From the NCBI GenBank assembly GCA_001275005.1, contig JWZX01002391.1, forward strand, positions 1 to 28,515: DNA of 28,515 bases, in the 5' to 3' direction. The stretch's first letter is position 1; the number at the start of each line of letters is the position of its first letter. This DNA comes from Chrysochromulina tobinii (lineage: Eukaryota; Haptophyta; Prymnesiales; Chrysochromulinaceae). Below the pieces are notes generated by a model, which worked only from the letters and a program-made list of their open reading frames with translations, made no database searches and was not told the origin of the DNA. A program made the translations under genes and the position numbers. Below, in pieces: positions 3,092 to 24,400 of the stretch.

Positions 3092-5321
3092 TCACATAAA
3101 GAGAAGCCGCGGCACGATGGAAGTGGCGGCGAGCCCACTAGCGAGGACGGATCCGTATAGCAGGAGAGCTTTCCAGACGCGCTGCTGCCTCGCAGCCGTC
3201 GCCGCGCTCGCAGCCACACGCTCGAGCTCCGAAGCATCGACGAGGATCATGCCGCGCCGTTGCTCGAAGGACACACCTGATGAGGGAGCCCATCAGACGC
3301 AATCAGAGACGCCATCAGGCGTAATCGGACGCCGTGGCTCGAAGGAAAAACTTCGGCCTTGAGGAAGTCGATGGCACTCAGACGCAATCTGATGGCCATC
3401 GGACGCAATCACACCTTCGGCCTTGAGGAAGTCGATGGACGTCTGCACGGTGACCGGTAAGTTGGCGGCCATGCTAGGGCGGCTCGAGCCTGGAATGATC
3501 GCAGGCGGCCTCGTGCCCTTCTGTCCCGCACCTTTGAGGGCCGGCTGCGCAGTCGTCGCGCGATTCGTCGCGTGGCCGGCCTCCAGGCGGTGATCTCCCG
3601 TGATCTCCTCACGGATGAGCGGAGGCGTACCTGATGAGTGATGCCATCAGATGAAATCAGAGGCCATCAGATGCAATCAGGGAGCGTACCGGTCAGGATC
3701 ACCCACGAGCCGACGTAATCAGACGCAATCATATGTAATCAGACGCACTCAGACGCACTCAGGGAGCGTACCGGTCAGGATCACCCACGAGCCGCCGTAA
3801 CCACACGCCCCGATGCCACGCTCGCGAGCCTCCCCCGCCAGTCGCAGCTCCGCCCGCAGCGCGAGAGAGACCGCGGGCCGGGTGAGACCCCTCAGGTCTG
3901 TGACGAAACGCACGTCCGGGGGCAATTCCGAAGGAGCGGCGTACCTGATGAGGGACGCAATCAGACGCACTCAGATGCAATCTCCCAAGGGGCGGAGTAC
4001 CTGATGAAGGAGGCAATCAGACGCACTCAGATGCAATCTCCCAAGGGGCGGCGTACTGCTGTCCTGGGTTGAGAGCGGGCGCCTCCGAGAGCACCGACTC
4101 GGCGAGAGACGTGTCCGCGAAGAGCTGCAGCAGTGATGTGCGTGTCGCCGAGCTCTCCGCCACGCCTCGCAGCCGCATGCGCTCTCGGAGCTCCTCGGCT
4201 GTCGCCACTAGGTCCAGGCCTTCCAAATGCGGACGATCACCTTCCAAATGAGGACGAGAAAGAGATGCCCTCACGAGCGCGAGGAGGGCGGAGGTATACC
4301 TGATGAGAGAGGCCATCAGAGGCCATCAGAGGCGATCAGAGGCGATCAGAGGCGATCAGAGGCGATCAGAGGCGATCAGAGGCGATCAGAGGCGATCAGA
4401 GGCGATCAGAGGTCATCAGAGGCCATCCGAGGCACGATCGCGAGGAGGGCGGAGGTTATACGAGGTCTCGTTCGGCGCAGGGCCGTGCTCCTCCATGCGA
4501 CGGAGCGTGGTCAGCGCGAGCTGCACCTCGCCCGCCCGTGCCGCCTCGGCGATCAGCGTGTTGAGCACCACCGTGTCTGCCAGCCCACGCGCAGCTGCGA
4601 TCTCGACCAGCCGACGCGCTTCGTCAATCTGGCCACTGCGCCCAAGGAGCGCCGTGCCGAGCGCGATCGAGAACTTGTCAGCGGCGGGCGCGGCGCCGCC
4701 GTCCATCATCTGAGCCAGCAGCTCCTGCGCCGCTTTGGCCTCCGCCGCCTTGCCCTCCACGCCTGCGCGTCCGTCCGTCACCTCCCACGATCGGATGGTG
4801 GCCGCCAGGTAGCTGTTGCACACACGCGTGTTGAAGCAGCCCGCTGCCCGCGCTGCAGCGAGCACCTCGGATGCTATGGCCATGCTCTCTGTCGATCCAA
4901 AGGCGGTGATGAAGTCGCTCGAAAGGTGCGCATCGAGGGGCGCCGGCTCGCCTTGCTCGTGCACCGATCGCCATAGCTGCCGCACGAGCGCTGTTCGCTT
5001 TCGGCGGCCCGTCAAAGCCACGAGTGCGGAAAGCATGTACTTGTCCACAGCCACGGCTCCTGTCACATAAGCCTCCCACGCGCTCCCAACGTCATTACGC
5101 TTGCACGCGGAAAGGAAACCTTCCTTGTCCGAGGGCAGATTGGCACGCTGACGGCGGTGTCGCCTTTGTTCATGGGCAACACTGAGCGGGTTGGCCACTG
5201 GCAAACGGATTGAAAAGTGCCTGCTGGAGACGAGCGCAAGCGAAATGCGACACGGGCAAGCCAGCTTGACAGCACGCAAGCGAAACGCAGCACGCAAGCC
5301 CCCGTACGAGAGCGCCGCCAT
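3092..5321 (-). CDS. PPR-SMR-like organelle RNA-binding protein, five exons
   Basis: Five exons, complement(3092..3276, 3415..3630, 3772..3944, 4057..4299, 4462..5321), splice with GT-AG sites into one frame of 558 residues ending in TGA. The N-terminus (MAALSYGGLRAAFRLRAVKL) is an Arg/Ala-rich transit peptide. Helical-pair PPR repeats fill about residues 65-320, for example DTVVLNTLIAEAARAGEVQL, then HGPAPNETSYTSALLALV across the first splice. Residues ~380-430 (TDLRGLTRPAVSLALRAEL ... WVILTG) resemble an SMR domain with its DLHG-type motif. The last ~25 residues are a possible membrane anchor. PPR-SMR proteins bind organelle RNA or DNA. The upstream ATG is preceded in frame only by a TTG, so the ATG at 5321 is the start. 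All four introns are made of tandem repeats. The SMR assignment is weaker than the PPR one. Confidence 0.8.
3277..3414 (-). repeat. PPR intron 4: repeat intron containing a duplicated exon end
   Basis: This 138-nt GT-AG intron ends in CTCCCTCATCAG|G. It contains a perfect 24-bp copy (3351-3374) of the end of exon 4 (3415-3438), 64 bp apart. That copy is followed by a diverged copy of the start of exon 5 (CCTTCGAGCCACGGCG in the intron against CCTTCGAGCAACGGCG in the exon). Confidence 0.75.
3631..3771 (-). repeat. PPR intron 3: repeat intron containing a duplicated exon end
   Basis: This 141-nt GT-AG intron has TGATTGCATC/TGAGTGCGTC units and ends in CACTCATCAG|G. Inside it lies a ~41-bp copy (3678-3718) of the last part of exon 3 plus its donor site (3760-3800), a period of 82 bp. 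This creates a second donor-like GTACGCTCCC. The last ~110 nt before the acceptor have no AG. Confidence 0.75.
3945..4056 (-). repeat. PPR intron 2: two tandem 56-bp intron-like units
   Basis: The 112-nt intron is exactly two 56-nt units in tandem. Each begins GTACKCCGCCCCTTGGGAG and ends with YTCATCAG, so each alone looks like a complete GT-AG mini-intron. The next exon begins with another copy of the target (GTACGCCGCTCCTTCGGA). The joined frame reads QQYAAPSELPPD. Confidence 0.8.
4300..4461 (-). repeat. PPR intron 1: 10-bp tandem-repeat intron with duplicated target sequence
   Basis: This 162-nt GT-AG intron holds twelve 10-bp units at 4311-4430, eight of them identical. In the sense strand the unit reads TGATCGCCTC. 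The only AG in the whole intron is the acceptor, in CTCTCATCAG|G. The first ~28 nt of the intron (GTATAACCTCCGCCCTCCTC...) are a near copy of the first ~28 nt of the next exon (GTATACCTCCGCCCTCCTC...). Excising one copy plus the array restores a normal PPR motif (NETSYTSALLAL). Confidence 0.85.
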
Positions 5322-5387
5322 CAAATTCGAAAATCTTCGAGAGAGGCGACATGACGACGTCCCATCACAAACTTGGTGTTAATGTGT

Positions 5388-5403
5388 ATGTGTGAATGTG
5401 AAT
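5388..5403 (-). promoter_or_regulatory. Shared 16-mer upstream element, copy 2
   Basis: The minus strand reads ATTCACATTCACACAT, 66 nt upstream of the PPR start codon. It is identical to the copies upstream of the coiled-coil and FO synthase genes and has the same orientation relative to transcription. Confidence 0.45.
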
Positions 5404-6190
5404 TTGCGTATGTGTGATTTCTATCACACAAACCGGTTTGGTTCCCGGGGGGCGCCGGGACACAACACGGGGCTCAAGGGGACACACGCGGGCACACGGA
5501 ACACACTCTTCACAGACGAATCTCACAACCATCCCAACCCCCACCAATGCGCACCCGCATGACCGCGCGACGACAAAGGTACCGGTACGGATATGTCGGT
5601 ACGTGATCGGCCGGAGTGTGTGGGGACGACGCATTCGGCATTGATTGGACATCATGCACCGCGTCCTGACGTGCCCGCGACTCCTCGTCGGCCACACGGC
5701 CAGAACCCAGATCCTCGGAGATGCAGATGGACGCTCGATCGTTCGGTTTGCCGTTACGTATACTGCTGTCACAGTGTCACAAGTTACAGCTTACAACAAA
5801 ACGCACGTCTCCGGACGGGGGAGCGACGGGACCACTTCGCTCTCGACGGTCGCTCCCGCGGCGCGTGGCCCGTGGGTGCTCCGCTCGTCCGGAGGGTAAC
5901 AACGTCCGACATGCAACGTCAGTTGCTACGACGCGCTCGTACACATGCAGGGCCGGGCCGCAATCCGCTCGCAGTGCTACACATAAAGGCCACCCATGCA
6001 TAGCCGTTGGCCGCCCAGGAGCGACCCGGCTCCATATCCAAAACCCCTCAAACCCTCGCCGCATACGTCCGGTAGCTCATGCCGCCCCCACTGCTTACGC
6101 TCCCCCCTTGCCTATGCCGCACCCAGGTCCACCGCATTGCCGCCTCACAGAGGTAGCGACATGCGGCGGCGCTCGCCCGTCAGATGGTCC
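5404..6190. other. Intergenic region upstream of the PPR gene, no gene seen
   Basis: This stretch of ~790 bp lies between the PPR promoter side and the stop codon of the pyrophosphatase gene. Several ORFs are open, but none has domain-like or biased protein sequence. It probably holds the PPR promoter and the pyrophosphatase 3' UTR. I found no RNA gene. Confidence 0.45.
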
Positions 6191-7588
6191 TCAGACGGTC
6201 TTGGCGCCCGTGGCAGTGAGTTTCTGCCAGAACTGGTGCGTCTCTTCAATGACCCTCATGGTGTATTCCTTGCCCACCGCCTTCTCGTTCAACCCGAAGG
6301 AGTTCTGCGGCTTGCCGTCAATGACCTTGTAATTACGAAGCCACTCGCGCATGAAGGAGATGTAGCCGGGCAGCACGCGCTCGACGTCCTCGATGTCGTT
6401 GAGCTGCTGTGAGAGCGGGTCCTCCACGTTGATGCAGATCACCTTCCAGTCCGTCTCGCCATCGTCGATCATCGCGAGGCAGCCGAGCACCTTGACCTTG
6501 GTCACAGAACCCGAGCGCAGGATGCGCGTCCCAATCTCGATCGCGTCGATCGGATCATTGTCGCCGGCGAAGCCCGTGTCCGGCGTCGTGTGCTTCGGAT
6601 CCTCCCACGTCTGCGGGAAGGCGCCGTAGTTGAAGCACATGTCGCCGTGCTTGTACTCGCGAAGCTTGCCGTTCTTCACGTCCTGCTTGATTGGGTTGAA
6701 GGCCTCGCCCGTCGCGATCTCGAACTTGGCGCGCGAAAACTTTGGGATCTCGGTGATCATGTGCAAGTGCCCGTCCGAGCTGAAGAGCGGGATGTCGTGC
6801 CACGGAGAGATCTGCTTGAGCTGGCCAGCGTCGTTGTAGTGGAAGTGCACGCGGAAGTCGAGCGAGTTGGGCATGCCGGAGGTCGCGGTCGTCAGGTGTT
6901 TGATGTCGAAGGCGGACGAGAGCTTGTTCATGATCTTCTGGAAGCGCGAGGTGTACGCCATGCCCTTGGTCGAGAGCACTCCACTCTCCGAGTGAGCGAG
7001 CGTGTACCAAGCGAGGAAGTCGTCGAAGCCAATCGAGCCTTGGCGGGTTACGTCCATCGCCTTGAAGGCCAGCGTGAGCTCCGCATCCGTGAGTGGCTCG
7101 CCGAGCACCTGGTGGAGCTGGCCGAGCTGGTCGCGGTCGATGCGGCCGTCGCCGGTGTCGTCGGCGATCGAGAACACCTGGCGCAGCACAGACACGTCTT
7201 CCGCGGGCACACCCTCGTGCGGCGACGTCAGGTTCACGCCGCGCGCGAGGGCCTTGCGCTTGAGCCGGTCGATCTCGGCGAGCAGCGCCGGCACCTCCGT
7301 CTCGGCCTCGTAGAACGAATTGCGCGTGTACGCACGCTGGACACCGCTGTTTTGCACTGGCAACGTCACATCCGAGAGCGGCAAGACGTGCGGCGCCGCC
7401 GGCGGCGCGCTGGGCATCCCGCTGGGCATCCCGCGTGCCGGCACTGCACCTGCGCCAAGTTGTGTGCGCATGGTGACGGTCGATTCACCATACTGTCGTG
7501 AGACGGAGATGTCGATCGGCGGGGCGCCAGCCGGCACGAGCGCTTGGCGCGCAAGCGCCTGCTGAAGGAGGATGAGCTGCTCGTCCAT
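6191..7588 (-). CDS. Family I soluble inorganic pyrophosphatase with N-terminal EF-hands
   Basis: A single exon of 465 residues hydrolyses pyrophosphate to phosphate (family knowledge). The C-terminal ~235 residues are the family I pyrophosphatase fold, with the signature DNDPIDAIEIG (Asp343, Asp345, Asp348 bind the metals), upstream EIPKFSRAKFEIATGEAFNP and the EYKHGDMCFNYGAFPQTWE segment. Residues ~130-200 carry two EF-hand-like loops: 143-154 (DDTGDGRIDRDQ, Gln at position 12) and 179-190 (DVTRQGSIGFDD). Both are slightly non-canonical. The length far exceeds the plain ~175-290 residue enzymes because of the EF-hand region and a ~90-residue Ala/Pro-rich N-terminus that has no clear signal peptide. 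EF-hand pyrophosphatases are known from trypanosome acidocalcisomes (VSP type), so calcium control or a phosphate-storage role is a reasonable inference. Confidence 0.93.
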   Translation of the reverse strand: MDEQLILLQQALARQALVPAGAPPIDISVSRQYGESTVTMRTQLGAGAVPARGMPSGMPSAPPAAPHVLPLSDVTLPVQNSGVQRAYTRNSFYEAETEVPALLAEIDRLKRKALARGVNLTSPHEGVPAEDVSVLRQVFSIADDTGDGRIDRDQLGQLHQVLGEPLTDAELTLAFKAMDVTRQGSIGFDDFLAWYTLAHSESGVLSTKGMAYTSRFQKIMNKLSSAFDIKHLTTATSGMPNSLDFRVHFHYNDAGQLKQISPWHDIPLFSSDGHLHMITEIPKFSRAKFEIATGEAFNPIKQDVKNGKLREYKHGDMCFNYGAFPQTWEDPKHTTPDTGFAGDNDPIDAIEIGTRILRSGSVTKVKVLGCLAMIDDGETDWKVICINVEDPLSQQLNDIEDVERVLPGYISFMREWLRNYKVIDGKPQNSFGLNEKAVGKEYTMRVIEETHQFWQKLTATGAKTV

Positions 7589-7802
7589 GACTGCAAATCA
7601 ACTGTGAGACAAAGGAGACGCGAACGAGCGGGGTCAGGCGGTGAGAGGTAATTGGGCATAGAGCGAGCGGGGCTCGCCGCGGCTGCGGGTGCGTCCGCGT
7701 CGGGGAGGATCTAACATTTCACGAAGTGTATCTCCGCGGATTCGCCACAGAAGGAAGTCAAGTCAAGACGAAACGACGGATGGTGCGAGCTGGGCGCTTC
7801 AA

Positions 7803-8293
7803 ATGAGCCACGCGTCTGGACTCCATCTTTGGCCTTTATTCTGGCGTTGGGCCCGACTTCTTTCCGTCCTCCAAGTTTGGCGTGAACAAACTCACCGAAG
7901 AGCAACTCGCCCTCGACCCCCCCCCTCTCAACGCGGCGGAGCCGACAATCTTCGAGCGCAGACCCAGCGGTGCTCATGCTCAACGAGCGCGCTCAGATCG
8001 TGCTTTCCGTGCAGCCGCTCAATGGCGAGGATGACCGGCGGCTGGTGACCGATGCCCTCCTGCGGCTCGAGGGCGTGCGAACGGCCCATGTCGATATCCC
8101 GCGAGGGGTGGTGCGCGTGGATGGGGCGGCGAGCGACGTGGAACTGATTGCGACGATGGAGGCGCTGGGTAAGCGCGCGGCGGTCGTGACGCACACCCGG
8201 GGCGTGAAGGTTAACCCTCCGCAATCGGGCGGCATGCTGCGCGTCCAGCTCTTCATGAAACTTCTCGGGCGGCAAGCAAATTGCTGCGCATAG
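7803..8293 (+). CDS. Small HMA-fold (ferredoxin-like) protein, frame broken twice as sequenced
   Basis: The intact part starts at ATG 7976 and gives 105 residues: an HMA-like beta-alpha-beta pattern (IVLSVQPLNGEDDRRLVTDA, then LEGVRTAHVDI, VVRVDGAASDVELIATMEA) without the metal-binding CxxC, ending in ANCCA. Upstream, a different frame from 7816 to ~7965 reads like coding sequence (DSIFGLYSGVGPDFFPSSKF, then GVNKLTEEQLALDPPPLNAA). One extra base near 7963-7967 and another near 7815 would join ATG 7803 to this segment and to the HMA part as 162 residues. Either these are insertion errors, or translation starts at 7976 and the upstream similarity to coding is chance. It is head-to-head with the pyrophosphatase gene (214 bp between starts). 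The HMA call rests on fold pattern only. Confidence 0.5.
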
Positions 8294-8996
8294 ACATCTA
8301 ACTCCCCTGCGCATGTGGTGGCGGAGGCGAGAACCACCCTGAGCGCGCGTGACACACGTACTACCCCCCCCCCACCGATTCTTCCTCGCGTGCATCCCCG
8401 AGAGAGTGACTGAGGGAGGATGGACAGAGAGAGGGTCACTGAGCCAAATGCAAACTTGCTGCAAAAGAGACATCGAGAGTGACCGTGTGTATGTGCATAA
8501 TATGTGCATGAAAATAACTGTAGCTTTGACGTAGAGTGTTATGCCGGCCGGCAGAGCACACCTGCCTCGAGAAGGCGCAGCGCGGCGTGTTCGCGCCCCG
8601 GCCCCCGTGCCAAGCCCGCAAGACCAAGAGCCGCGCCGCCCGTGCGCCAAAATTCGCCGTGCGCCGTCCGCGTTACGTCCGCGGTGCGCGGTGTGGTGGC
8701 CTCCGTGACAACTCCGGAAGCAAGCAAGCTAATTTTGCTTGTTTGCTTGTGGCTCCGGCACTGCCGCCGCCGTGTCCGGGCTACCGGCGGGGCCGGGCTC
8801 GCTTGCCCGCTGCCTCTCTCACACCGCAGCCTGGCTCAGCCCGAGCAACACAGAGAGAACGCACGCACAGAGGTACACGCGCGTGGCACATGCCCTAGCG
8901 CTCGACCACCCACGCGCGCATCACCCCGCCATGCTTCGTGCGCCTCCTAATCGACGCCCGACGGGATTCATTGCGACTCCGCCTTGCCAGTGCCAC
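8294..8996. other. Intergenic region between convergent genes, no gene seen
   Basis: About 700 bp lie between the HMA-like gene and the TMEM70-like gene. An inverted repeat CAAGCAA-N7-TTGCTTG lies at 8721-8741. I see no coding or RNA gene. Confidence 0.45.
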
Positions 8997-9687
8997 TCAC
9001 TTGTTGATAGCTTTCTCGAGCTTCTCCATGAACTGTTCGTCGTGCATCTCGCCGAGCTCGTCGAGGTAGTACTTATTGCCCTTCGCCTCGAAAGTCGCAA
9101 ATGGATGATAGCCGAGCGGCCGCGTGATGTCGGCCCATGCGACCTCGGTCGTCGTGGATCCGCCTGTGAGCGTCGGCGTCTCGATGATCATCGCCTCCTT
9201 GCCCGGTATGGACGTGATGGTCAAGACGTAGGTGGAGGTTGCCCAGGTCAGCGCGCCCGTCGTGCCACCACCAAACGAGAGCAGCAGCATGCTCATAGCC
9301 ACACCCTTGCCGCTTGCACCCGACGCAGCTGTGATGTACTGCAGGAGTGGGACTGTGGCACGGACACAGAGGGCCAATGAGCGGCAAAACTCTGCGCTAA
9401 CACGGCGCAAGGGCAGGCCTACCTGAAGCAACTGCAAAACCGAGATTGGCGATCGAAGCAAGCTTCAGGGTTTTGACTATCTTGTTCTTGGCGCCCTCGA
9501 ACATGAGCTTTGGTTTGGGATCATCCACGGGTGCTGCCGCGCCCTTATTGGATTTTGTGCTGCACGAGCGGCTGCCCCAGGCTAAAGTTGGCCGCAAAGC
9601 TGCCAGTGGGGGAAGTTGCGAGGCGCAAGGTAGCCGTGCAGCGCAGCGGAGTGCCGAGGGGGCGAGGCCTGAGGCTCGCCGAAACAT
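8997..9687 (-). CDS. TMEM70-like mitochondrial membrane protein, two exons
   Basis: Exons complement(8997..9352, 9423..9687) join over a 70-nt GT-AG intron (TCAG|GTAGGC ... CCACAG|TCCC) into 206 residues. The start is the ATG at 9687, because the longer frame begins only with TTG. The N-terminus (MFRRASGLAPSALRCAARLP) is a typical mitochondrial leader. Two hydrophobic segments follow, around LASIANLGFAVASVPLLQYI and MSMLLLSFGGGTTGALTWAT, with a conserved-looking tail (YVLTITSIPGKEAMIIETPT ... PLGYHPFATFEAKGNKYYLD). This layout of a leader, a two-helix hairpin and a C-terminal beta-rich part matches the TMEM70 family, which helps assemble ATP synthase and complex I in the inner membrane. The family call is from pattern memory. 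The intron is ordinary and holds no repeats. Confidence 0.7.
9353..9422 (-). other. Ordinary 70-nt intron of the TMEM70-like gene
   Basis: GT-AG, phase 1, no tandem repeats and no flanking duplication. It serves as a contrast to the repeat introns elsewhere in the window. Confidence 0.75.
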
Positions 9688-9847
9688 CGAAATTCGGGCT
9701 TCGGAGCTCAATGGCTGATGATGGAAAGTTTAGTCAATTGGCGAGACCGCTAGAGATTTTTGTCTTTGATACAACACTTGGCTTAGACAAGACTTGGCGC
9801 TCTGGCCGGCAGCCCGGCACACATCTGTCGACGAATTTCCAGGAGAA

Positions 9848-10543
9848 TCACAGTGCGCGAGGCCTCGGAGTAAGAGCGCGCCGTCGAAAGCAGAAAGCGC
9901 GAGTCGTGCTCGTGCGCAGCGTGAGCTTGCGCGCCAGCAGTAGGTAGCTCAGTCGCCACCGGCGATGCCTAGCCTTGCGGATCGAGCTGCTGCCACCGCC
10001 GACTTTGGCGGCTGCGGTTTGGCTGTCGCTGATCGGCGCACTTGGCGCGGTTTCTCGATGGAGTGTCGTGGCTCCTGTCGCATCCGCAGGTGCAGGGAAC
10101 GAAGCAAATGAAGACACTCGGTTGGCCGTCGATTTTGTAGGTGACGAACGCCAGTAGCTGTCCAGATCGTCATCAAGGCTTGAGACTGTGTTTTGACGAG
10201 GCTCAGCAAGCCCAAATTCTGAAGGCGTCTCTGACTCCGCCGCGGCCTCTTCGGCCAATCGATGCAAATCGAGCCCGAGCGTCCGCGCCTTATCCATCAC
10301 AGAGTCGTCGAGCGTCGCTTGCGCAGCCAGCTTCCTCTTTATGAAGGCTGAGATCACGTCCTTCTCGCTCTTTGGCTTCGCGACCTTGCCAGTGCTGACG
10401 GTCCTGCGATGTGTCGGCAGCGGAGGCGGTGGCTTTGCGGCATCTGCTGCGAAACGTGCGGCCCTAGCCTGCGCACGTGCGCGCTGCTCGTCCAGGTCAT
10501 GTCCGTCCGCCCCAGCGAGCGTCATGCGGCCCGCCCCTCGCAT
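9848..10543 (-). CDS. Unknown basic/acidic low-complexity protein
   Basis: The open frame from ATG 10543 encodes 231 residues. It begins MRGAGRMTLAGADGHDLDEQ, is followed by an Arg/Ala-rich stretch (RARAQARAARFAADAAK) and a helical acidic segment (SEKDVISAFIKRKLAAQATL, then DDSVMDKARTLGLDLHRLAE), and contains SLDDDLDSYW, which recalls the C-terminal motif of some mRNA-export proteins. The last ~60 residues are Arg-rich and look untypical, so the true 3' end may lie at an unrecognised intron or frame. The start is head-to-head with the exostosin-like gene (140 bp). I do not recognise the family. A nuclear RNA-associated protein is only a guess. Confidence 0.45.
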   Translation of the reverse strand: MRGAGRMTLAGADGHDLDEQRARAQARAARFAADAAKPPPPLPTHRRTVSTGKVAKPKSEKDVISAFIKRKLAAQATLDDSVMDKARTLGLDLHRLAEEAAAESETPSEFGLAEPRQNTVSSLDDDLDSYWRSSPTKSTANRVSSFASFPAPADATGATTLHRETAPSAPISDSQTAAAKVGGGSSSIRKARHRRWRLSYLLLARKLTLRTSTTRAFCFRRRALTPRPRAL

Positions 10544-10683
10544 TAGAAAATGCTTTTGCAGTTCACGCGCCACGTCTCAAACTTCTCGTGCGGTTCAAAG
10601 TGTGTCCCGGCTACCACGGTGTCAAACTTTCCGTGTCTAAATTCCTCACTCGCGTCACGAGCGCGTGTGTGCTTCGCGAGAGA

Positions 10684-11835: not shown

Positions 11836-12022
11836 GAAAACTCTGTGATAAAAACGGTGTGTTTCTCAGACTCAGTTATATCTTTCAACTCGAGAGTCGC
11901 CGTTTAGGCCGTTTTCGCCGGGTCATCTCTCGATCAGTCGCGATCACCCCAGCGGCCCGGCCAGCGGCAGCGGCCCCCCTCGACCGACATCATCTTCGGG
12001 CGGCTCAGATCCCTGGCGCCTA

Positions 12023-14303: not shown

Positions 14304-14364
14304 AGGCTGAACCTCCAACGCGCAGGTGGGGCTGCACAGGAGGGGCTGCTCAGGAGAGGGTTCC

Positions 14365-14547: not shown

Positions 14548-17500
14548 ATGAGCATGACCACCACGAACAGCACGGCGGGCCTGATGCTTCGGTGCACAAA
14601 CGGCTGCTTGATGTATCCAGCAGCGGTCTCCGACGGCATGTGCTCCGACGGTGGCCCGGGCGCCGAGTATGCACAGTGCCTCATCGGCGATGACTGCAAT
14701 GACTGCGGGCCTCGCTATGTCCCTGCGCCGCCGCCGCCGCCTCCCCAGATCATAAAGTGCACGAACTCATGTTCATACTATCCGGCAGCGAGCTCCGATG
14801 GCACGTGCTCCGACGGTGGCCCGGGCTCCGTTTTTGCGCAGTGCCGTCTCGGCGAGGATTGCAATGACTGCGGCCCTCGCCTTGTGCCGGCGCCGATGCC
14901 GCCGGCAGCGCCCGGCACGAACATGACCGGCCTGTGCGACAACTCCTGCTACTACTCAACCGACGTCTTCTGTGACGACGGCGGCGTGAACGCCGATAAT
15001 GACGTGTGCGACCTCGGCACCGACTGTGACGATTGTGGCGTGCGCTTCCAGCCGCCGATGCCGCCGGTGGCACCCTCGCCTAGGTCTCCGCCGCCGTCTC
15101 GACCACCGTCTCCACCACCGTCGCCCAAGACGCCCACCACCCGCTTGGCCGCCGCCTCCGTCGCCCTCGCCGCCGCCTCCGTCGCCCTCGCCGCCGCCGC
15201 CCTCGCCGCCGCCGCCCTCGCCGCCGCTACCGCCGCCGCAAGTGCCACGAGAATTTTGGGGTCCGTCCTCGCCACCTGCGCCCCCGCCGCCGTCGCCGTC
15301 GCCGCCGCCGCCGTCTGCGCCGCCGCCGCCTCCGGCAGTGCCGCCCAGGCCGCCACGGTGGCCCGGGACCAACAGCTCCACGCCCATGCCACCGGCCCCA
15401 CCGCCATACATCGACCGGCACTGCGCTGCTGGGCACATGTGGAACGAGACCTCTCGCCAGTGCGCGCCGTGCCGAGAGGGCACCTACAACGGCCTCGCTG
15501 GGTCGAATCGCACCGAGTGCGCCGAGTGCCCGGCAGGCCAGTACGCGCCGCTCGCGGGCTTGCTCCAGTGCGAGCGCTGCCCAGTCGGGAGCTTCGCTTC
15601 GGAGAGCGGCCAGCGCGCATGCGTCACGTGCGCAGCGTACGGCCTTCGGTACACGACGACGCTGCGCGGAGGGAGCACCTCGCCCGTAGAGTGCGTGTGC
15701 GCCGCGGGCGCGTGGCTGCCTGAGTGGCCGCGCCGCGGCGGGCGCTCTTGCTCCCGCTGCCCTCACGGCGCGCTCTGTCCGGGCGGCGACGCGCTGCCGA
15801 TCGCCGCGCCGGGCTACTGGTCTGACGAAGCCGAGGTGACGCGCGTCATCTGGCAGGGAGAGTCCGAGCGCGTGCCCCTCTTCTGGCGGTGCGCGGCCGG
15901 AGAGCTCGGATGCCTCGGTGGCGACGCCCTTGCCAATCTCACCTCGCGCTGTGCCGCCGACCGGCGCGGGCCGCAATGCGCGGGCTGCGTGGCGGGCCAC
16001 TTTGGCATCGGAGCGCTCTGCGGCACGTGTGACGGACCGGGAGGGCCGCTGCCGTTGCTCTTCGGCACACTGCTCCTTATCGGCTGGCCTCATCTCGTCG
16101 TCTGGCTCGGTGCGCGCACCAGCTCCCTGCGGCTCTGCGTGCAGGCGGCACAGACGCTCGCCGTGCTCGGCAGCCTGCGGCTCGGATGGGTGGACGGCAG
16201 CGCCTTGGGCTCGGGGATCGCGCAGACCGTCGGGCTGCTGGGAGTGCTGCTGCAAGACCCTCGGCTCACTCTCTGGAGCTGCGACGTAACGGTCGATCCG
16301 ACGACCGTTTGGACCGCGCTCATGTTGCTGCCCCTCCTTGAGGCGGCGCTGCTGCTCGTGATGCAGCTTGGCATCTACCTGACGCTCAGCTCGATCACCT
16401 CTCTGCCCGCTGAGGTCGTCGTGACTCGCATGACGTCGCGCATGCGCGCGACGCACGGCTACCTGGTGCGCGTGCTGCTGCTGCAGTGGCCCGGTCTCCT
16501 GCACCGCGCGATGATGCGCGTGCGCTGTGAGGCTCGTGCCGACGAGGAGAGCGACGGAGCGGCGGACGGGCAGGTGGGGCCTGCGCCTCCGTTTATACTC
16601 TCGCCCTTCCCGCCAAGGCCGCCCCCTGCCTTCTTTGGAACGATCACGTCACCGCCGCCTCCGCCGACGCCCTCGCCGCCTCCACCCTCAGCGCCGCCGC
16701 TGCTGCCGCCAACGGCAGGAGTGTTCACCGTTGATACTCTACGCCCACCGCCCGCCGCGCCCGCCGCGCCCGCCGCACCCGCGTCACCCGCGTCACCCGC
16801 CGCGCCGCCCGCCCCGATCTGTGCGTACGACGGCCAAGTGCTCGGCCAGACCTCCCACATGGTGCCGAGCGCTCTGTTCCTGTTCACGTTGCTCCTCGTC
16901 CCCGTCCTTGGGGCTTGGCGAGTGCGCCTGCTGCGCCGCGCCCGCCGCCTCGGCTCGAGCGCCGCGCACACGAGCTACGGCGTGCTGTATGCCGGCTTCA
17001 CGCCCCGTGCGTACCTGTGGGAAACAGTCATCGCGCTCCGGTTCGCGGCGCTCTCGGCGCTCGCCACGGCGCTCCCTGAGCACCCGAGGGTCCAGGCAGC
17101 AGGCGCGCTCGTGGTGCTCGCGCTCGGGACGGCGCTGCGGCTCGCGTACCGGCCGCAGCTCGTGCCGGCGTACGGTCGGCTCGCGATCGTGTACGACGTG
17201 CTGCTCCTGCTGCTCGTGCTCACGCACTCGCTGGCCGAGGGCGACGACAGCCTCGAGGCCGGATGGGGCGCGTTGGCGGGCGCCGCGGCGGGCGCAGGCG
17301 CCGTGGCGGGCGCGACGGGCGCGAGTGCCGTGGCGGGCCCGGGCGCCGTGGCGGGCGCGGGCGCGAGCATCAGCATCGGCCTTGAGGAATGCATCTCGAG
17401 TGCGCAGATCCTCGATGCGGCGAGCACTCCGACGGGCGCACACTGCCTGCGCCTCCTCTACCCTCTGATGAGCGCCGTCCTGATCGGCCTCGGCGCCCTC

Positions 17501-20500
17501 GCAGCCGTGGTGGCGTTCGCGTACGACGTGCTGCACTACCATCGGCTTCGCAAGCTGCTCGCGCTACCCGCTGCCCAACTAAGGGAGAGCGACCCGCTCG
17601 CTCTGAGCGGCCCGGCGGCCCGGGCCGCCCTCCACCTGCCGCCCTCGAAGCGCAATCTGCTCTCAGCGCACCTGCGAGCGTTGCGGGTGTGCCGTCCGTC
17701 GCCAGAGACGTCCGACCTCGCGATGCGGCTGCACGAGGTGCCTCGGAGGACCCCTGATGACCCGTGAGGACCCCTGATGACCTCGCGATGCGACTGCACG
17801 AGGTGCCTCGGAGGACCCCTGATGACCCGTGAGGACCTTTGAGTGCCTCTCATGACCTCTGTTTGCCTCGGATGACCTTTGAGTGCCCTCTGATTGCCTC
17901 TGATGAACTCTGAGAACTTCTGATCGCCGCTGAGGACCTCTGATCGCCGTTGAGGACCTCCGATTGCGTCCCTCATCAGGCACTGCCTGGGCTCGCGGAC
18001 TGGGCGCTCGATGCATCTCCAGCCGAGCTGCAGGCGCTCCAAGCGCTCCTCCCGCGCATCGAGGCTGCCGCGCCCCTCGGGCCTGTGGGCCGTTCACTGC
18101 TCCGGCCGACACAGCTGCAGGTGCTCGAGGCGCTCCTTGTGACGAACCACGAGCCATCGCCGGGTTCGTCACCGGCGCTCGCGACAACGCGGCGCTCGCT
18201 CTCGCTCGGCGCGTCATCGCATGCTCGCGCCTCTCTGCTGCGGCTGCTGCGCGACGTGACGGGCCATCACGCGATGCCATCGGCGGCCCAGCCATCGCAC
18301 GAGCTCGAGTACGAGACGGAGGTGCTCGCCGCACTGAGGCCCTCTGAGTGCCTCTGAGGAACTCTGAGGACCTCTGATTGCCTCGGATGACCTCTGATTG
18401 CATCGGATGACATCGGCTGGCCTCTGATGACCTCTGCGTTCCTCTGATGATCTCTGATGACCTTTGATGACCTCCGATGGCCTCCCTCATCAGGCGCTCG
18501 CCGCGCTGCGCGTGCCTGCCGATGCGCTTCTGATCGATGAGGCGCTCGAGCTCGGGCTCTTCGCTCAGTGCGTGCGCCACCGGCGCGGCGGCGGGAAGGG
18601 CAAGGGCGGTGACGGCGACGGCGCCGACGGGGGCGCCGACGACGGGGGCGCCGACGACGAGTACTTTCCCGTCTGGCTTCCCGTGAGCGCCACGACGCCC
18701 TTCGACCTATGCGACGCCGCGATCGCAGTCAGGTACGACCCTCGCACACTCGAGGCTGCGACTGCCGCAGACGGGGGAGGAGGCGGCGGCGGTGTAGGCG
18801 GCGGTGCTGGAGGCGGAGGCGGCGGCGGCGGCGGCGGCGGCGCTGTGAGCCTCGTGGCAGTGCTCTCCCCCGACGCGGTCGACCTTCCTGAGGCTGAAGT
18901 GTACGAGCTCCGGGTGGCCACTTCGGACTTTGAGCACGCGGGCTGCAGCGCGCGCGCGTGGGCATGCCTCATCGGCGAGCATGCCACCTCGCGCGACGTG
19001 CCGTTGCACTGCGATCTCGGCGAGATCTCGAGGGGCGAGATTGCGCCCTTGCGCCGGGGCAGCGTCGCCACTTACCGGTTCGTCAGCCGTCCGCTCGGAC
19101 GACTGAGCTGCGTGCGGCTGCTGCGCGAGGGACGGGGCAGCAGCTTCGACGAGGGGAGCTGGCATGTGGCGTGGCTCGAGGTCGTCGCTCTCGGGACCGG
19201 CGAGGGATGGCGCTTCGAGGCTGGCTTGTGGGTCGAGCGTGAGGACGTTGCCCTCACGCCCACTGAGTACTGGCAGGCTCCCGAGGGTGGCGACGGCGGC
19301 GACGCGGCCCGTGACGAGAGCCTCGCCCGCTCACACCGAGGCGTCGCGCCGCCTATGCTGCGTCACGTCCGCCAGCTGGGCGAGCAGTGTGAACCTTCAC
19401 AGCCGGGCGAGCAGTCCGCGCCGAGCCAGCGGGACGGCGGTGTGAACATTCACAGCCAGCGGGACGGCGGTGTCGACGTGGCCGTCGCCCCAATCCATAA
19501 GGCGACACCGCCGAGGGGGTACAGTCCATTGCAGTCGCGCTCCAGCGCTCAGTACGGCGTCGAGGCTCCAGCGATGAGCAGCCGCTCGCTCGGTGATGCG
19601 CCGACCATGCCCATGCCCTCGAGGTACCTGCCGCCGCTGCCCGGGCTCAGCGCACTTGGAGGCCGGTCGAGCCGAGCCGAGAGCGTCGCCTCGACCCGAG
19701 CCACCCCGCGCACCTTTGACGACCTGACGCCACGCAACGAGAGCCCGCAGGTCGAGCTGCAGCAGTTCCCGATGCCGCCGCTTCACGAGCATGCGCCCGC
19801 GCCGCGCTGGACGGCCCTCGGCTCGGCGGGCGCCCAGCACGAAGCGATACGCGCCGCCCAGCACGGCGCGCTGGGCGGTGCGTGGGGGAGCACGCCGGTG
19901 TGCCCGGAGCGCCCCTTACCGGGCACCTACAACAGTGGGTCGGAGCATTGGCTCCCATCGAGGTGTGAATTCACAGGCGGTGAGGGCGGGTCGGAGCGTT
20001 GGCTTCCATCGATGGGACAACCGTCCATGGGAGCCATCAACGGAGCCGTCGCTGCGTATCACGGGCTGATCCCGCCCTCATCGATGCTGCCGCCGCCGCC
20101 GGGCATGCTACCACCCGGCCTCGTGCCCACACCGTACCTTCACAGCTTCGGCATGCCGCAGCTGCCCCCGCCGTCCTTCGGCCATCCCTCCATACCGCCG
20201 CACCTCCTCGGCTCCATCCCGCCTGTGAATTCACACCTCGGCTCCATCCCGCCTGTGAATTCACACCTCGGCTCCGTCCCGCCCTTGTCTACTTGGGGGC
20301 CACCCCCTGCCGCCCCCGGAACCATTTTCCCCGGCCTCGAGGGGCACCAGCACCGCCCACCGATCCCCCTCGCCACCTTCGCAGCCTCCGCCGCGCACTC
20401 TGGTCTGCTCCCGCCCCGTATCCAGACCTACCGCGCCCAGGCGTCCGAGGCCACCAGTCGAGCCTCGAGTCTCCTCTCGTCCAGCCTCGAATCGAGCCGC

Positions 20501-20944
20501 GCGCCGAGTCGAGCCTCGACCAGCGCCACCGCCACCGCCGCCGGCGGCATCGGCGGGAGCGCCGCCGCGGGCATGTGGCTTGCGCCACAAGGCGGCGGGG
20601 CCAACCAGTCGAGCGCCGTGGCGGGCGCCATCCCACCGTCAAAGGCCGTCCCGCAGGATGCGCCGCCCTCGCACCGGTGCACCAGCCTGCCGCCGGCACC
20701 GCCGCCGGCGCCGCCGCCGACGGCGCCAGCCAAGCTTGGCGCACGTGTGGACATGCCGGTGCCGCCTCTCGGGCTGCATCGCGTCGGGCTGGGGTCGGCG
20801 CCGGTGGTCGCCCCAGCCGCCGCGGCGGTCGACGCCGAAGCAGAAGAGATGGGCTGGCCTGGTCTGAGCGACATGGAATCGGAAAGCGGGTCGGAGCCCA
20901 GTCCATCAGACGCGAACCCGAATGAGTCCAGGCAGATAGCTTAG
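14548..20944 (+). CDS. Very large Cys-rich / multi-TM / PLAT-domain membrane protein
   Basis: Exons 14548..15083, 15130..17737, 17980..18321 and 18494..20944 give 1978 residues. Residues 16-170 hold three DCxDCG-type Cys modules (at 16, 71 and 130) split by proline. Then come proline-rich linkers, an ephrin-receptor-like GCC2/GCC3 Cys region (~277-415: CREGTYNGLAGSNRTECAEC, CPAGQYAPLAGLLQCERCP), and about eight hydrophobic helices between ~486 and ~980, interrupted by a ~100-residue Pro/Ala loop. A PLAT domain follows at ~1296-1413 (EVYELRVATSDFEHAGCSAR ... GSWHVAWLEVVALGTGEGWR), then a ~560-residue low-complexity tail. A surface sensor or adhesion protein with cytosolic PLAT is the natural reading. 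The frame change at 15084-15129 could be a 46-nt intron or one extra base. No signal peptide is seen at ATG 14548, so an upstream exon may be missing. Confidence 0.75.
15084..15129 (+). other. Possible 46-nt mini-intron, or indel, in a proline-rich linker
   Basis: The frame shifts by one within CCN repeats. A GT at 15084 (CCTAG|GTCTCC) and an AG at 15129 (GCCCAAG|ACGCC) bracket 46 nt, which restores the frame exactly (PSPRRPPPAWPPPPS). One extra base would do the same. The 46 nt still encode proline-rich peptide, which argues for the indel. Confidence 0.35.
17738..17979 (+). repeat. PLAT-gene intron 2: repeat intron with 65-bp duplication across the donor
   Basis: This 242-nt GT-AG, phase 0 intron joins ...MRLHE to ALPGLADWALD. 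It consists of TGATGACCTC/TGAGGACCTC-like units and ends in GCGTCCCTCATCAG|G. The exon end plus donor (from 17716) is repeated from 17781, a period of 65 bp, giving a second CACGAG|GTGCCTCGGAG. The first donor must be used, because the duplicated copy is out of frame and follows a TGA. Confidence 0.8.
18322..18493 (+). repeat. PLAT-gene intron 3: repeat intron with target duplication
   Basis: This 172-nt GT-AG, phase 0 intron has TGATGACCTC-like units and ends in CCTCCCTCATCAG|G. The intron begins GTGCTCGCCGCACTGAGG and the next exon begins GCGCTCGCCGCGCTGCGC, a near copy in which only the intron copy has GT. The final ~125 nt before the acceptor contain no AG. Confidence 0.85.
19375..19470 (+). 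repeat. Two palindromes TGTGAANNTTCACA, each between direct repeats, in coding sequence
   Basis: Palindrome 19388-19401 lies between GCTGGGCGAGCAG (19375-19387) and GCCGGGCGAGCAG (19402-19414). Palindrome 19441-19454 lies between two perfect copies of GCCAGCGGGACGGCGG (19425-19440, 19455-19470). The added lengths, 27 and 30 nt, keep the frame. Confidence 0.8.
19937..20012 (+). repeat. Palindrome TGTGAATTCACA within a 25-bp direct repeat, in coding sequence
   Basis: The palindrome at 19964-19975 sits between 25-bp copies at 19937-19961 and 19988-20012, with 23 of 25 positions equal. The period is 51 nt, a multiple of three. Confidence 0.75.
20206..20283 (+). repeat. Palindrome TGTGAATTCACA twice, alternating with an 18-bp direct repeat
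   Basis: Three copies of CCTCGGCTCCATCCCGCC (20206, 20236 and 20266, the last with one change) alternate with the palindrome at 20224-20235 and 20254-20265. The 30-nt period encodes PVNSHLGSIP twice. Confidence 0.85.
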
Positions 20945-21412
20945 TGACCTCAGGCGAGCGGACGCGTCGTTTACACCATTCATCGTACAGCCTGGGCACG
21001 GCCGTTACGTTTGCAGCTCCAGACCTCCACCTCGTCCTCGCGGTGCGGAGATTTGGGGTTTAGTTGCGCCCAGAAACTACGCTTCCAGAAACTGTACTGG
21101 TACATGTATGTGCACGTCGGTGGTACCATCTAACGCGCGCACAGCGTCAAGAGCGCCATCACATTTCCGCGATTTTTGCATTTTTGGCTTTCCAGCAGTC
21201 GAGTGCTCAAACGGACAAACCGCGGAGCGCGGACTCGACACCTCGACAGTCTCATTTTGATAAGCAGATGAGGACCATGCAGCCCGGCCGTTAGGTCAAC
21301 ACGACAAGTCCTGTGGGCCAATTTGCCACTGCTCCGCCGTCACTTGCATTCGCCACCCCCGCCAAACGTCACTTGCATTTGCCTGTCGTGCTCATCTCGG
21401 CGCCTGTCGTGC
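20945..21412. other. Intergenic region between convergent genes
   Basis: The 468 bp between the PLAT-gene stop and the FO synthase stop hold no gene that I can see. Near 21339-21420 two short tandem duplications occur: GTCACTTGCATTYGCC twice, and CGCCTGTCGTGCTCATC-like twice. The second reaches the FO synthase stop codon. Confidence 0.5.
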
Positions 21413-24400
21413 TCATCCAACCTTGACCGGCAGCAGCGGCCCTGCACGCGCGGCGGCCGCCTCTCGCTCGGCGCCCGCGGCCGCATACAGCGTCGTGCGC
21501 TGCCAGGCGCGCCTCTCAGCACCACCAGCGTCGGCCGGGAGGCTCTCAATGATGGCTCGCATGCCTGCTGGGGTCATCTCCTGCCCATTCTTGGCGCCTG
21601 CAGCACGGCTGATCGACTCGGACATGAGCGTGCCGCCTAGGTCGTTCGCGCCCGCGCGCAACGCCATCGCAGCGCCCCGCGCCCCCATCTTGGTCCACGA
21701 CGTCTGGATGGAGGGTACATTGGGCAACGCAAGCCGCCCCACCGCATGCACCAGGAGAGCTTCACGGAGGGTCGGGCCGGGGCGCGCTTGCCCACGCCGG
21801 TACACGGGCGCCTCCGGGTGCACAAAGGGCAACGGCACAAACTCGGTCACCGCCGCGGGCGCGCCCGATCGAATCGTACGCTCTTGCCTAATTTGGATCC
21901 TCTTCAAATGTTTTGCGAGGCTCGTGTAGCCTTCGACGTGGCCGAACATGAGCGTCGTGGTGGTGGGCAGCCCGGCCGCATGCGCTTCGCCGAGGACACG
22001 AAGCCATTCAGACGAGCGCAGCTTGTCGGGGCAGATCTCGTCGCGCACCGCGTCGTCGAGCACCTCGGCCGACGTGCCCGGCAGGGAGCCGAGCCCCTCC
22101 GCCTTCAAGACCTGTAGGAAGTCGGACGTGCTCACACCGAGCGCACCGGCGCCTTGCGAAACCTCGAGGGGTGAGAAGGCATGCACGTGGATGGACGGGA
22201 CCGCTCCGCGCGCCGCTCGCAGGAAGCCGAGGTACGAGCTGCCGTCGTACCGGCCGTCGATGCCGCCTTGCATGCACACCTCGGTCGCCCCCCTCTCCCA
22301 GGCCTCCTCTACCCGTCGAGCGAGCTCCGCGAGGTCGACGTCGTAGGCGGCGCCTTTCGCCTCCATCGTCCCCTTGGAGAATGCGCAGAAGGAGCACGCG
22401 TACACGCACCTGCCATCCGAGGGGTCATTCGCGCCATCAGAGGCAATCAGAGGCAATCGGAGGTGGTGCACCTGCCATACGAGGGCCATCCGAGGCCATC
22501 CGAGGTCATTGCAGCTCATCAGGAGCTCATCAGGAGCTCATCAGAGCTCATCAGGAGCTCATCAGGAGCTCATCAGGAGCTCATCAGGAGCTCATCAGAG
22601 CTCATCAGGAGCTCATCAGGAGCTCATCAGGAGCTCATCAGGAGCTCATCAGGAGCTCATCAGGAGCTCATCCAGAGCACCGTCCGATGAGAAGAATGCG
22701 AGCACGCACCGGTTCGTGTAGTTGATGTTGCGGCACACCACGTACGAAACCGCCGAGCCGACGAGACGCTGGCGAAGCAAGTCGGCGGCGATGCACGTGG
22801 CGGCCAGATCGGGTCCGCGCGCGTGCAGCAATCGCTCCATCTGGCGCAGCGTGAGCCCGCCGCAACCCAGCGCCGTCGTGAGCGCCTCGCGCACGCCGCG
22901 GCTCAACCTCGAGTCGCCTAGCAATCTCGTCTCATCTCCCGCCGCCGCGGCAAGCATCGCTTCGAACCCGTCGCCGAAGGGCACCCATCGCATCTCGTCC
23001 TCTTCAGAGCCCGAGGGGGGCGCGCGCACCAGCCCCGCGTGCCACGACAGCTGTGCCGCGCGCTCCGTGCGCGCGTAGCCCGCGCCGTCGGAGAGTCGGC
23101 GGACGTGCGGTGCGACCGCGGGGTGCTGCCAGCGCGCAAGGGAGCGCGACGCGACCGACCGGTGCGCCACGAAGCGTGGGTAGGCTGGCAGGAGGGCAGG
23201 CGCGGCGCAAGGTGCAGGCCGTCAGCATGGAATGATCAGCATATGATCATCAGAGGTCCTCAGAGGTCCTCAGAGGTCCTCAAGGGTCATCAAGGGTCGT
23301 CACCTGGTAGGCGCGGCACGAGGCGCAGGCCGAGCGCCTCTGTCTCGGAGCGAAGCCTCGCCACGTCAGGCCACGCCGCCTCCGGGTTGACATGATCGGG
23401 CGTGACGCCTGCGCGTCGAGGAAGGACAGGGGTCGTTGGTCATCAGTCGTCATCAGTCGTCATCAGAGGTCATCAGAGGTCATCACCTGGTGCGGGTCGG
23501 AGGTGGGCCTCAGTCGTCATCAGAGGTCATCAGAGGTCATCAGAGGTCATCAGAGGTCATCAGAGGTGATCACCTGGGGAGATACCGCCCCAGTCGTCGA
23601 CGCCGCAGCGCAGCAGCCGCCGCAGCGTGGCCCCGTCAGCACTGAGGTTGGGCGGCGACTGAATGGGCACGCCTACCGGCCCGAGGATGAGCTTAGCACA
23701 GGCGACCGCCCAGAGCAGCTCCTCCTCGGGGAAGGCCTCCGCGCTCGCCATGCCCGTTCCCGCCTTTGGACGAAACGGCTGCACGATGAGTTCCTGCACA
23801 TGTCCCCAGCGCTCGTGCGCGTGCCTCACGCGTAGCAGGGCCTCGACGGTGTCGGCGCGCGTCTCGCCGAGCCCGAGGAGCAGCCCCGTGGTGAAAGGCA
23901 CGCGCAGCCGGCCCGCCAGCTCGATCTGGCGCAGCCGCGTGCGGGGCAGCTTCGTCACACAGCCCGCATGCGCTCCGCCGGGTGCGCTTGCCGCCTCTGC
24001 AACCGTCTCGAGCATCAGGCCCTGCGAGACGGCGACCTCGCGCAAGCGAGCCATCTCGCGCACGCTGAGCACGCCGGGGTTGGTGTGCGGCAGCAGCCCC
24101 GTTTCCTCGAGCACGCGCGCCGCCACCGAGGCGAGGTAGGCCACCGTGCTCTCGAAGCCCATGGCGTCGAGAGCCTCGCGCGCTACGGGCCACCGCGCCT
24201 CGGGCCGGTCGCCGAGCGTGAAAAGGGCCTCGGTGCAGCCGGCCTCCACGCCGCGACGAGCAATGTCCAGCACCTCGTCGGGCGTCAGGTACGCCCGCTT
24301 GGCATCGGCCACGCCGCCGTGTGCCGCAAACGTGCAGTAGCCACAACGATCTTGGCAGAGGCGCGTGAGCGGGATGAAGACTTTGCGGGAGTAAGTGACG

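What the first reader, a model, noticed from the sequence alone, without database searches (positions are those of the whole stretch)
3277..23573. A family of strand-locked tandem-repeat introns with a common 3' end
Nine introns in three unrelated genes (PPR 3277-4461, PLAT gene 17738-18493, FO synthase 22410-23573) are made of a ~10-bp unit whose sense strand reads CTGATNRCCT-like. The unit always has the same orientation relative to the host gene, although the genes lie on opposite strands. Six of nine end in CTCATCAG|G, far more than a splice acceptor needs, so they look related by descent rather than separate microsatellites. Removing them closes the PPR frame (558 codons) and the FO synthase frame (831) exactly and is in phase in the PLAT gene. 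This fits introner-like elements, which are known from some algae and fungi (established). A repeat-array type with this sequence is, as far as I know, undescribed (inference).
Basis: partly seen in the sequence, partly recalled or inferred. Interest (0 to 1): 0.88.

Follow-up and report, generated by a model that had tools for sequence, protein, structure and literature searches.

The report
Self-copying introns in an alga
In the genome of a haptophyte alga, thousands of introns made of a short repeated word look like copies of one another that were pasted into genes, each paste duplicating about 15 to 40 letters of the host gene, which suggests that introns here multiply much as retrotransposons do.

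Summary
In detail: nine sense-locked introns built from a ~10-bp CTGATNRCCT unit, six ending CTCATCAG|G; removing them gives a 558-codon PPR gene and an 831-codon FO synthase. Genome-wide, TCCCTCATCAG occurs 2,351 times (reversed control 13), followed by GT in 1,567. New here: many of these introns are flanked by long target-site duplications (TSDs, mostly 15-40 nt). The exon sequence right after ...CATCAG is repeated at the intron's start and supplies the 5' splice site; others can splice at an AG|GT inside the duplication. Ends are asymmetric: 3' mostly fixed at CAG, 5' variable, no terminal inverted repeats. One source can be named: an asparaginase-gene intron carries 62 nt (61/62 identical) of another gene's intron, including exon-derived sequence, and stops at the same CAG. 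Homologues from other contigs read straight through seven window intron positions. A second family (at least 2,132 matches) shows the same geometry. Reading: introners, of a 3'-anchored, long-TSD kind that looks retrotransposed from intron RNA. Insertion is well supported, copying rests on one traced pair plus the shared ends, and the RNA step is inferred. The largest published survey seen removed low-complexity families, so this kind would probably have been missed.

The parts
4300..4461 (-). PPR intron A: TSD copy 1 (4461-4433) + array + CTCTCATCAG; TSD copy 2 is the next exon (4299-4272)
   Evidence: score 23.8; domain PPR_2 spans the junction; homologues P0002, P0003 and P0004 read through
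3945..4056 (-). PPR intron B: exon copy GTACGCCGCCCCTTGGGAGATTGC at its start (4056-4033), copy 2 in exon (3944-3922); two stacked 56-bp copies
   Evidence: score 18
3631..3771 (-). PPR intron C: an exact 33-nt direct repeat (3762-3794 across the 5' splice site, and 3680-3712) flanks an array; ends CACTCATCAG
   Evidence: 82-bp period; 33/33 identical; the score anchored at the CAG is only 7.8
3277..3414 (-). PPR intron D: inner exon copy (3351-3330) of the next exon (3276-3255), stacked on a second copy of the upstream exon
   Evidence: score 15.4
17738..17979 (+). PLAT-gene intron 1: a 30-nt direct repeat (17717-17746 and 17782-17811, one mismatch) containing CACGAG|GTGCC flanks a 35-nt array; then a longer array ending CCTCATCAG
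   Evidence: (65-bp period, 98%); the CAG-anchored score is not above chance
18322..18493 (+). PLAT-gene intron 2: TSD copy 1 GTGCTCGCCGCACTG, copy 2 GCGCTCGCCGCGCTG (18494-18508)
   Evidence: (score 12.6)
23409..23573 (-). FO synthase intron 1: array, ends GACGCGCAG; no clear duplication
   Evidence: homologues read through, some one residue shorter at the junction
23185..23303 (-). FO synthase intron 2: 27-nt duplication of the upstream exon (23332-23306) lies inside the intron's 3' end (23221-23195), next to the acceptor
22410..22709 (-). FO synthase intron 3: CTGATGAGCTC array; starts with a diverged, gapped copy of the next exon (GTGCGTG...)
   Evidence: radical-SAM motif restored on splicing

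Best explanation
These are introners: mobile spliceosomal introns that copy themselves into exons. A copy of the 3' part of an existing intron (a few to many CTGATNRCCT units ending in CTGATTGCCTCCCTCATCAG, which reads as branch point, pyrimidine tract and 3' splice site) is inserted at a staggered break, duplicating about 15-40 nt of exon. The new intron brings its own 3' splice site and takes its 5' splice site (GT) from the upstream TSD copy; splicing then restores the mRNA exactly. Others instead can splice at an AG|GT inside the duplication. Shown here: duplications, a mostly fixed 3' end with variable 5' ends, sense orientation, homologues without the introns, one traced copy event. Inferred: the copied template is intron RNA, whose natural 3' end after splicing is the CAG, and insertion is by target-primed reverse transcription with LINE-type enzymes.
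For: TSDs: 24 of 44 CTCATCAG-ended elements exceed the 99th percentile (13.15) and 16 of 44 the maximum (16.8) of 176 permuted controls; among the 31 with no further element in the next 200 nt, 16 exceed 13.15 against 1 of 31 for exon shifted by 60 nt. Second family: 14 of 21 rows (20 distinct 3' ends) exceed the maximum (11.0) of 105 permuted controls. Fixed 3' end: 2,351 against 13. Next dinucleotide GT in 1,567 of 2,351 against 370 of 7,891 after any CAG in 20 stretches. Variable 5' start and array length; no terminal inverted repeats above control. Copying: L030 (asparaginase gene) carries 62 nt, 61/62 identical to the 3' end of a C395 intron copy, with exon-derived sequence of the C395 gene, ending at CAG, between its own 22-nt TSDs. 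The CAG end is kept when splicing does not need it (L070, L074). Homologues read through all seven PPR and FO sites. Domains run across junctions. LINE-like RTs, one copy 5'-divergent at 96% identity, and an endonuclease domain are present.
Against: No RNA-seq. Only one of four searched unique 5' segments had a second copy. 20 of 44 elements lack a TSD above the control's 99th percentile. The second control (exon shifted 60 nt) is high over all 44: 15 reach 9, where the real set has 34; above 13.15 most of the excess comes from the 13 loci with another element close by (6 of 13 shifted against 8 of 13 real). After splicing, 16 of 34 joined 300-nt pieces still contain a stop in their best frame, which I put down to further introns nearby. 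In the traced pair both exons start GTACGG, which would also fit template switching on DNA. Some arrays do not end at CTCATCAG. No LINE carrying this tail was seen. Junction microhomology is also expected of end joining, and boundary ambiguity inflates it.
Confidence: 0.62

Rival explanations
1. DNA-level capture: staggered double-strand breaks in exons are filled in and joined with templated filler copied from other introns (polymerase-theta-like or microhomology-mediated template switching). Selection keeps only products that splice cleanly. No RNA intermediate.
For: Direct repeats at new introns in Daphnia were explained by staggered breaks, though only 4-12 bp long (PMC4202315, passages). 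Short microhomology at junctions. The traced source and target both read GTACGG after CAG. Arrays with ragged 3' ends exist.
Against: The same 11-mer ends more than 2,000 copies and is kept in two elements whose acceptor lies in the TSD. TSDs cluster at 15-40 nt rather than spreading from zero, although my cut-off hides short ones.
Confidence: 0.25
2. DNA transposon (MITE-like) introner, as described for other algae: a transposase moves a fixed-end element.
For: This is the usual reading of algal introners with TSDs and TIRs (PMC9860276, section 7 and passages). The second family has a constant core.
Against: No terminal inverted repeats above control: 1 of 21 and 1 of 16 elements exceed the permuted 95th percentile. 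Variable 5' ends. TSDs several times longer than the 3-9 bp quoted for earlier families.
Confidence: 0.06
3. Minisatellites that arose separately in ordinary introns; sense orientation and the common end reflect splicing selection (branch point CTGAT, pyrimidines, CAG).
For: The unit looks like a branch point plus pyrimidines (consensus recalled). Arrays do change: the 98%-identical protein P0001 reads into intron A but then departs from the window (and reading).
Against: Does not explain TSDs, the traced copy, the CAG|GT excess, or homologues without introns at the same positions.
Confidence: 0.04
4. Tandem duplication of an AGGT-containing exon segment made the introns, with no insertion from elsewhere.
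For: Exon duplications are present and some contain AG|GT (L020, L036, L070).
Against: An array or other shared element lies between the two copies in nearly all 41 elements listed; a few rows there are stacked copies of the same element.
Confidence: 0.03

Closest known systems
Introners / introner-like elements (PMC9860276: search listing, section 7 and passages of other sections seen; supplements not available)
   Same: Many similar introns in unrelated genes, insertion into exons, mRNA restored, 5' splice site taken from the TSD in some families, mostly aquatic hosts, families of up to more than 2,000 copies
   Different: TSDs of about 15-40 nt instead of the 3-9 bp quoted there for earlier families (examples shown: 4 and 8 bp); 3'-anchored with variable 5' end; body is a tandem array, a class which that survey removed by hand as low complexity
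Chrysochromulina sp. introner family 5 of the same paper (Tara MAG; passages)
   Same: A haptophyte genus (recalled); no TIRs
   Different: 4-bp TSD; carries its 5' splice site and co-opts the 3' one: the reverse of the main class here
Fungal introner-like elements, interpreted as propagating by reverse splicing (as summarised in PMC9860276)
   Same: Proposed RNA propagation, gene bias
   Different: No TSDs or TIRs in the fungal elements; long TSDs here
Daphnia neointrons from staggered breaks (PMC4202315: passages)
   Same: Exon-derived direct repeats at intron ends
   Different: Repeats of 4-12 bp there; here one shared element family with a common 3' end
5'-truncated LINE/SINE insertions (recalled)
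   Same: Fixed 3' end, variable 5' end, variable-length TSDs
   Different: No LINE tail or poly-A seen in the elements read; the 3' end coincides with the splice site

Membership tests
Introners | Sequence-similar introns in many unrelated genes | tested here: met
   unrelated genes
Introners | Insertion into exon with mRNA restored | tested here: met
   homologues read through; domains across junctions; by conceptual splicing only
Introners | Lying in genes, in sense | tested here: met
   28 of 34 left and 28 of 34 right flanks coding in sense, 17 of 34 in sense and in phase; in 20 unselected stretches 15 of 16 flanks with a strand difference of at least 0.1 favour sense; no systematic intergenic survey
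Introners | Splicing seen in RNA | not testable with these tools
   no RNA reads held
MITE-type (DNA) introners | Terminal inverted repeats and short TSDs | tested here: not met
   terminal inverted repeats at control level; long TSDs
TPRT retroelements (mechanism, not membership) | Fixed 3' end, variable 5' end, long variable TSDs | tested here: met
   arrays with other 3' ends also exist
TPRT retroelements (mechanism, not membership) | RNA intermediate | not testable with these tools
   one traced copy ends at the splice site, which fits RNA but does not prove it
TPRT retroelements (mechanism, not membership) | 3' tail shared with a resident LINE | tested here: inconclusive
   one LINE-like copy, contig C1050 read to base 8000; no array found, 3' end not located

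The most novel reading that the evidence does not exclude
Spliceosomal introns that multiply as retroelements: the 3' end of an excised intron RNA, itself a tandem array of branch-point-like units ending in the splice acceptor, is reverse-transcribed at a nicked exon by LINE-type enzymes, so that each insertion makes a spliceable intron from target plus template. A second family suggests that the machinery uses more than one intron as template.
Probability: 0.45. Interest if true: 0.95.

Novelty: new variant of a known kind. Interest (0 to 1): 0.85.

Why it matters
How new spliceosomal introns arise in bulk is a long-standing question. Most introner families surveyed so far look like DNA transposons, and an RNA route has been proposed for fungal ones that lack TSDs. 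Here thousands of introns share ends and, where sampled, many carry a retrotransposition-like footprint; duplications range from 100% identical to barely recognisable, so old and young copies lie side by side; and one parent-offspring pair can be named. The route can therefore be tested directly. It also shows that tandem-repeat introns, which a survey discarded, can be mobile elements.

Tried and rejected
Rejected: separate microsatellites; tandem exon duplication alone; DNA transposon (see rivals). A viral vehicle: exact scans of viral contigs gave 0 matches for two family-1 patterns and 9 for a 16-mer, which I judge chance and did not inspect. One match to the second family lies in the last 60 bases of an IMG/VR contig (L080); I take it for a chimaeric join, untested. 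Source tracing: one of four unique 5' segments had a second copy. The array variant of L037 gave only itself and matches with 2-3 mismatches. LINE tail: no array in the part read. Microhomology: means 1.45 against 0.58 permuted (n=38) and 1.76 against 0.55 (n=17), but the permutation does not allow for TSD overshoot, so only suggestive. Species: the only eukaryote names among the 120 listed FO synthase hits are the haptophytes Pleurochrysis carterae and Prymnesium polylepis; not resolved further. The passages seen of the Chrysochromulina tobin genome paper (PMC4580454) and the Diacronema paper (PMC8379373) mention no such introns. The Emiliania genome paper (DOI recalled) is not held. My note gives 24 of 44 for a score of 14 or more; the list gives 23 for that cut-off and 24 above 13.15. 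A line meant to translate intron A was out of frame and is not used; the comparison with P0001 is by reading.

Full report
OBSERVATION. Removing four from the PPR gene gives 558 codons from its ATG, three from FO synthase gives 831 codons, and two from the PLAT gene leaves it open. Six of nine end CTCATCAG|G. The sense strand of each reads CTGATNRCCT-like.

GENOME-WIDE. The window is one whole contig (C1249) of a 53.15-Mb, 2,253-contig genome. CTGATGACCTCTGATGACC with up to 2 mismatches occurs 4,319 + 4,466 times against 1 + 0 for the reversed pattern. TCCCTCATCAG occurs 1,164 + 1,187 times against 5 + 8. TCCCTCATCAGGT occurs 755 + 812 times against 1 + 0, so 1,567 of 2,351 are followed by GT; in 20 sampled stretches GT follows 370 of 7,891 CAG. 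GTRCG follows 466. The tool calls such counts lower bounds. In 20 stretches of 10 kb taken at about even steps through the contig numbers, arrays of at least three units were found in 7 of 20.

TARGET-SITE DUPLICATIONS. The exon sequence right after CTCATCAG is repeated, from its first base, at the left edge of the array, for example L026 GTCGCGGTGCCCCTTGTATGGCGCTCCT[array]CTCATCAG|GTCGCGGTGCCCCTTGTATGGTGCTCCT. Of 44 elements with a pyrimidine-rich CTCATCAG end (from the window, the 20 stretches, 20 targeted 2-kb stretches and two search loci), 24 exceed the 99th percentile and 16 the maximum of 176 permuted pairings, and 34 reach a score of 9 against 27 of 176. A second control, exon shifted by 60 nt, reaches 9 in 15 of 44. 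Split by surroundings: of 31 elements with no further element in the next 200 nt, 16 real and 1 shifted exceed 13.15 (25 and 8 reach 9); of 13 with one, 8 and 6 exceed 13.15 (9 and 7 reach 9). Across 41 elements of both classes with scores of 13 or more, duplication lengths run from 13 to 49 with median 26; the longest include stacked copies. The 20 targeted stretches were picked by a GT after CAG. To offset this, 12 stretches around sites without GT were read. Of 13 sites, L070, L074 and L077 have clear duplications of 32, 33 and 20 nt starting right after CTCATCAG, one more is a stacked copy, and the rest are unclear or lack an array. In L070 and L074 the AG|G that restores the exon lies inside the duplication, so the CTCATCAG end is kept although that splice does not need it. 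Terminal inverted repeats are at control level: 1 of 21 CTCATCAG-ended and 1 of 16 other elements exceed the permuted 95th percentile.

TWO SPLICING CLASSES. The main class brings the acceptor and borrows GT from TSD copy 1. Others can splice at AG|GT (or AG|G) inside the TSD: L020 (two), L036, L016-5725, L070, L074 and the first half of PLAT intron 1 (and reading). Under a strict ungapped rule, precise GT-AG removal was possible in sense for 15 of 35 arrays and in antisense for 8 of 35. This rule misses gapped duplications and stacked introns, and I do not rest on it. Some arrays with perfect duplications and no acceptor (L016-5928, L032-592) sit inside larger introns by my reading.

STRAND AND FRAME. 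A codon model, trained on window genes (35 of 39 training windows right) and then on the sample itself, was run on the 34 elements with a duplication score of at least 9. In these, 28 left and 28 right flanks score best in sense, and 17 are in sense on both sides and in phase after splicing; 16 of 34 spliced pieces still hold a stop. Stacked introns blur these figures. In the 20 unselected stretches, 15 of 16 flanks with a strand difference of at least 0.1 favour sense. Of 16 elements spliced in silico (score at least 10.5; L008, L029, L035, L039, L045 and the window left out as stacked or done elsewhere), 7 give an open frame through the whole 300-codon stretch. I gave five of these 16 to Pfam; in all five a domain runs across the junction: asparaginase, kinesin, SET, GH3, and Exo_endo_phos, the last 0.1 bit under its cut-off. 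PPR_2 spans PPR intron A.

HOMOLOGUES WITHOUT THE INTRONS. P0002 (62% identity) reads through PPR introns A and B; P0003 and P0004 read through A to D in the alignment, though C lies in a poorly conserved stretch. P0003 carries an insert at another position that looks like a read-through intron, so its contig is probably genomic. P0006, P0007, P0008, P0009 and P0012 (66-74% identity, contigs up to 14 kb) read through all three FO positions; P0007 and the more distant P0015, P0016 and P0029 are one residue shorter at intron 1. Such protein sets favour uninterrupted frames, so this shows that relatives without the introns exist, not how common they are. The 98%-identical P0001 shares the first residues of the intron A read-through and then continues where the window has a stop (reading).

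A TRACED COPY. L030 lies in an asparaginase gene (C19). Between its TSDs (GTACGGTACTCGTCGAAGCTCC and, with one mismatch, the next exon) it carries 62 nt: 29 nt of non-repeat sequence, then CTCTGAGTGCATGCTGATTGCCTCCCTCATCAG. The same 62 nt (61/62) end the first of two stacked copies at C395:9558-9619. There 23 of the non-repeat letters (GACGGAACTCGAAAGGATCCGGA) are that intron's copy of the C395 exon. So the copy went from C395, or a close relative of it, to C19, 3'-anchored and 5'-shortened, and stopped at CAG. Both exons begin GTACGG, which leaves template switching open. Three further unique segments had no second copy.

SECOND FAMILY. GCATGCAAGYGCTCACCACGGC (up to 2 mismatches) occurs 1,028 + 1,104 times against 0. 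Elements run ...GCATGCAAGTGCTCACCACGGCGCCC...CCCCACAG| with 1-17 variable bases before GCATGC in most of those with a TSD. Of 21 rows (20 distinct 3' ends), 14 have duplications above the maximum of 105 permuted controls, 22-57 nt long (the 49 and 57 run into the element), several perfect (22/22, 27/27, 34/34). L001 carries one CTGATGACCT unit upstream of its GCATGC, so the families look related.

MECHANISM. A common 3' end, variable 5' ends, long variable TSDs and no inverted repeats are the footprint of target-primed reverse transcription (recalled, as for LINEs). An excised intron ends at exactly this CAG. The last 20 nt, CTGATTGCCTCCCTCATCAG, would serve as branch point, pyrimidine tract and acceptor (consensus recalled), which also explains why sense copies persist in genes. 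The genome has LINE-like reverse transcriptases (L059, L061, L062; RVT_1 confirmed for L059 and L062) and an endonuclease domain on another contig (L063). L061 matches L059 at 96% from its position 691 to the contig end, with no match before it, as a 5'-truncated copy would. The RNA step and the enzyme are inferred.

NOVELTY. The largest survey seen quotes TSDs of 3-9 bp for earlier families, finds no TSDs in the ascomycete families thought to be RNA-borne, and removed low-complexity families by hand because microsatellite expansion could explain them (PMC9860276: section 7 and passages; its supplements were not available, so longer TSDs may be listed there). Amoebophrya introners have 3-5 nt direct repeats and inverted repeats (PMC7789003, passages). 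A study of 213 introns of all classes reports direct repeats of 4-30 bp, mean 11.4 (PMC11782384, abstract and passages). I saw no report of long-TSD or tandem-array introners in the listings of nine full-text searches; the library holds open-licence papers only, and most listed papers were not opened.

Noticed in passing
G000 genome-wide; L016, L018, L032, L039, L046, L001: Second introner family GCATGCAAGYGCTCACCACGGC...CCCCACAG, at least 2,132 matches, with long duplications.
   Followed up: partly
window 4461-4300 and protein P0001: A 98%-identical protein from another contig reads into PPR intron A with the same start and then departs from the window: the array seems to change between close strains.
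   Followed up: partly
window 20206-20283; also about 19390, 19440, 19963: 30-bp tandem repeat with the palindrome TGTGAATTCACA in the PLAT gene, and similar TGTGAA..TTCACA palindromes nearby in coding sequence.
   Followed up: no
L020, L036, L042, L079: Alternative 3' ends such as CTCATTGCATGCAG or AATTGCATGCAG beside CTCATCAG, apparently sub-families.
   Followed up: no
L035, L038, L039, L045, L079: Tandem stacks of TSD plus element (56-87 bp periods), as if the same site was hit repeatedly or the unit was duplicated.
   Followed up: no
L080:4495-4519: Second-family element in the last 60 bases of an IMG/VR contig; probably a chimaeric assembly, untested.
   Followed up: partly
L036:862 to about 945: A different tandem repeat (CCTCGTGACGAACC, 14 bp) directly after a TSD copy, ahead of the usual element end.
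   Followed up: no
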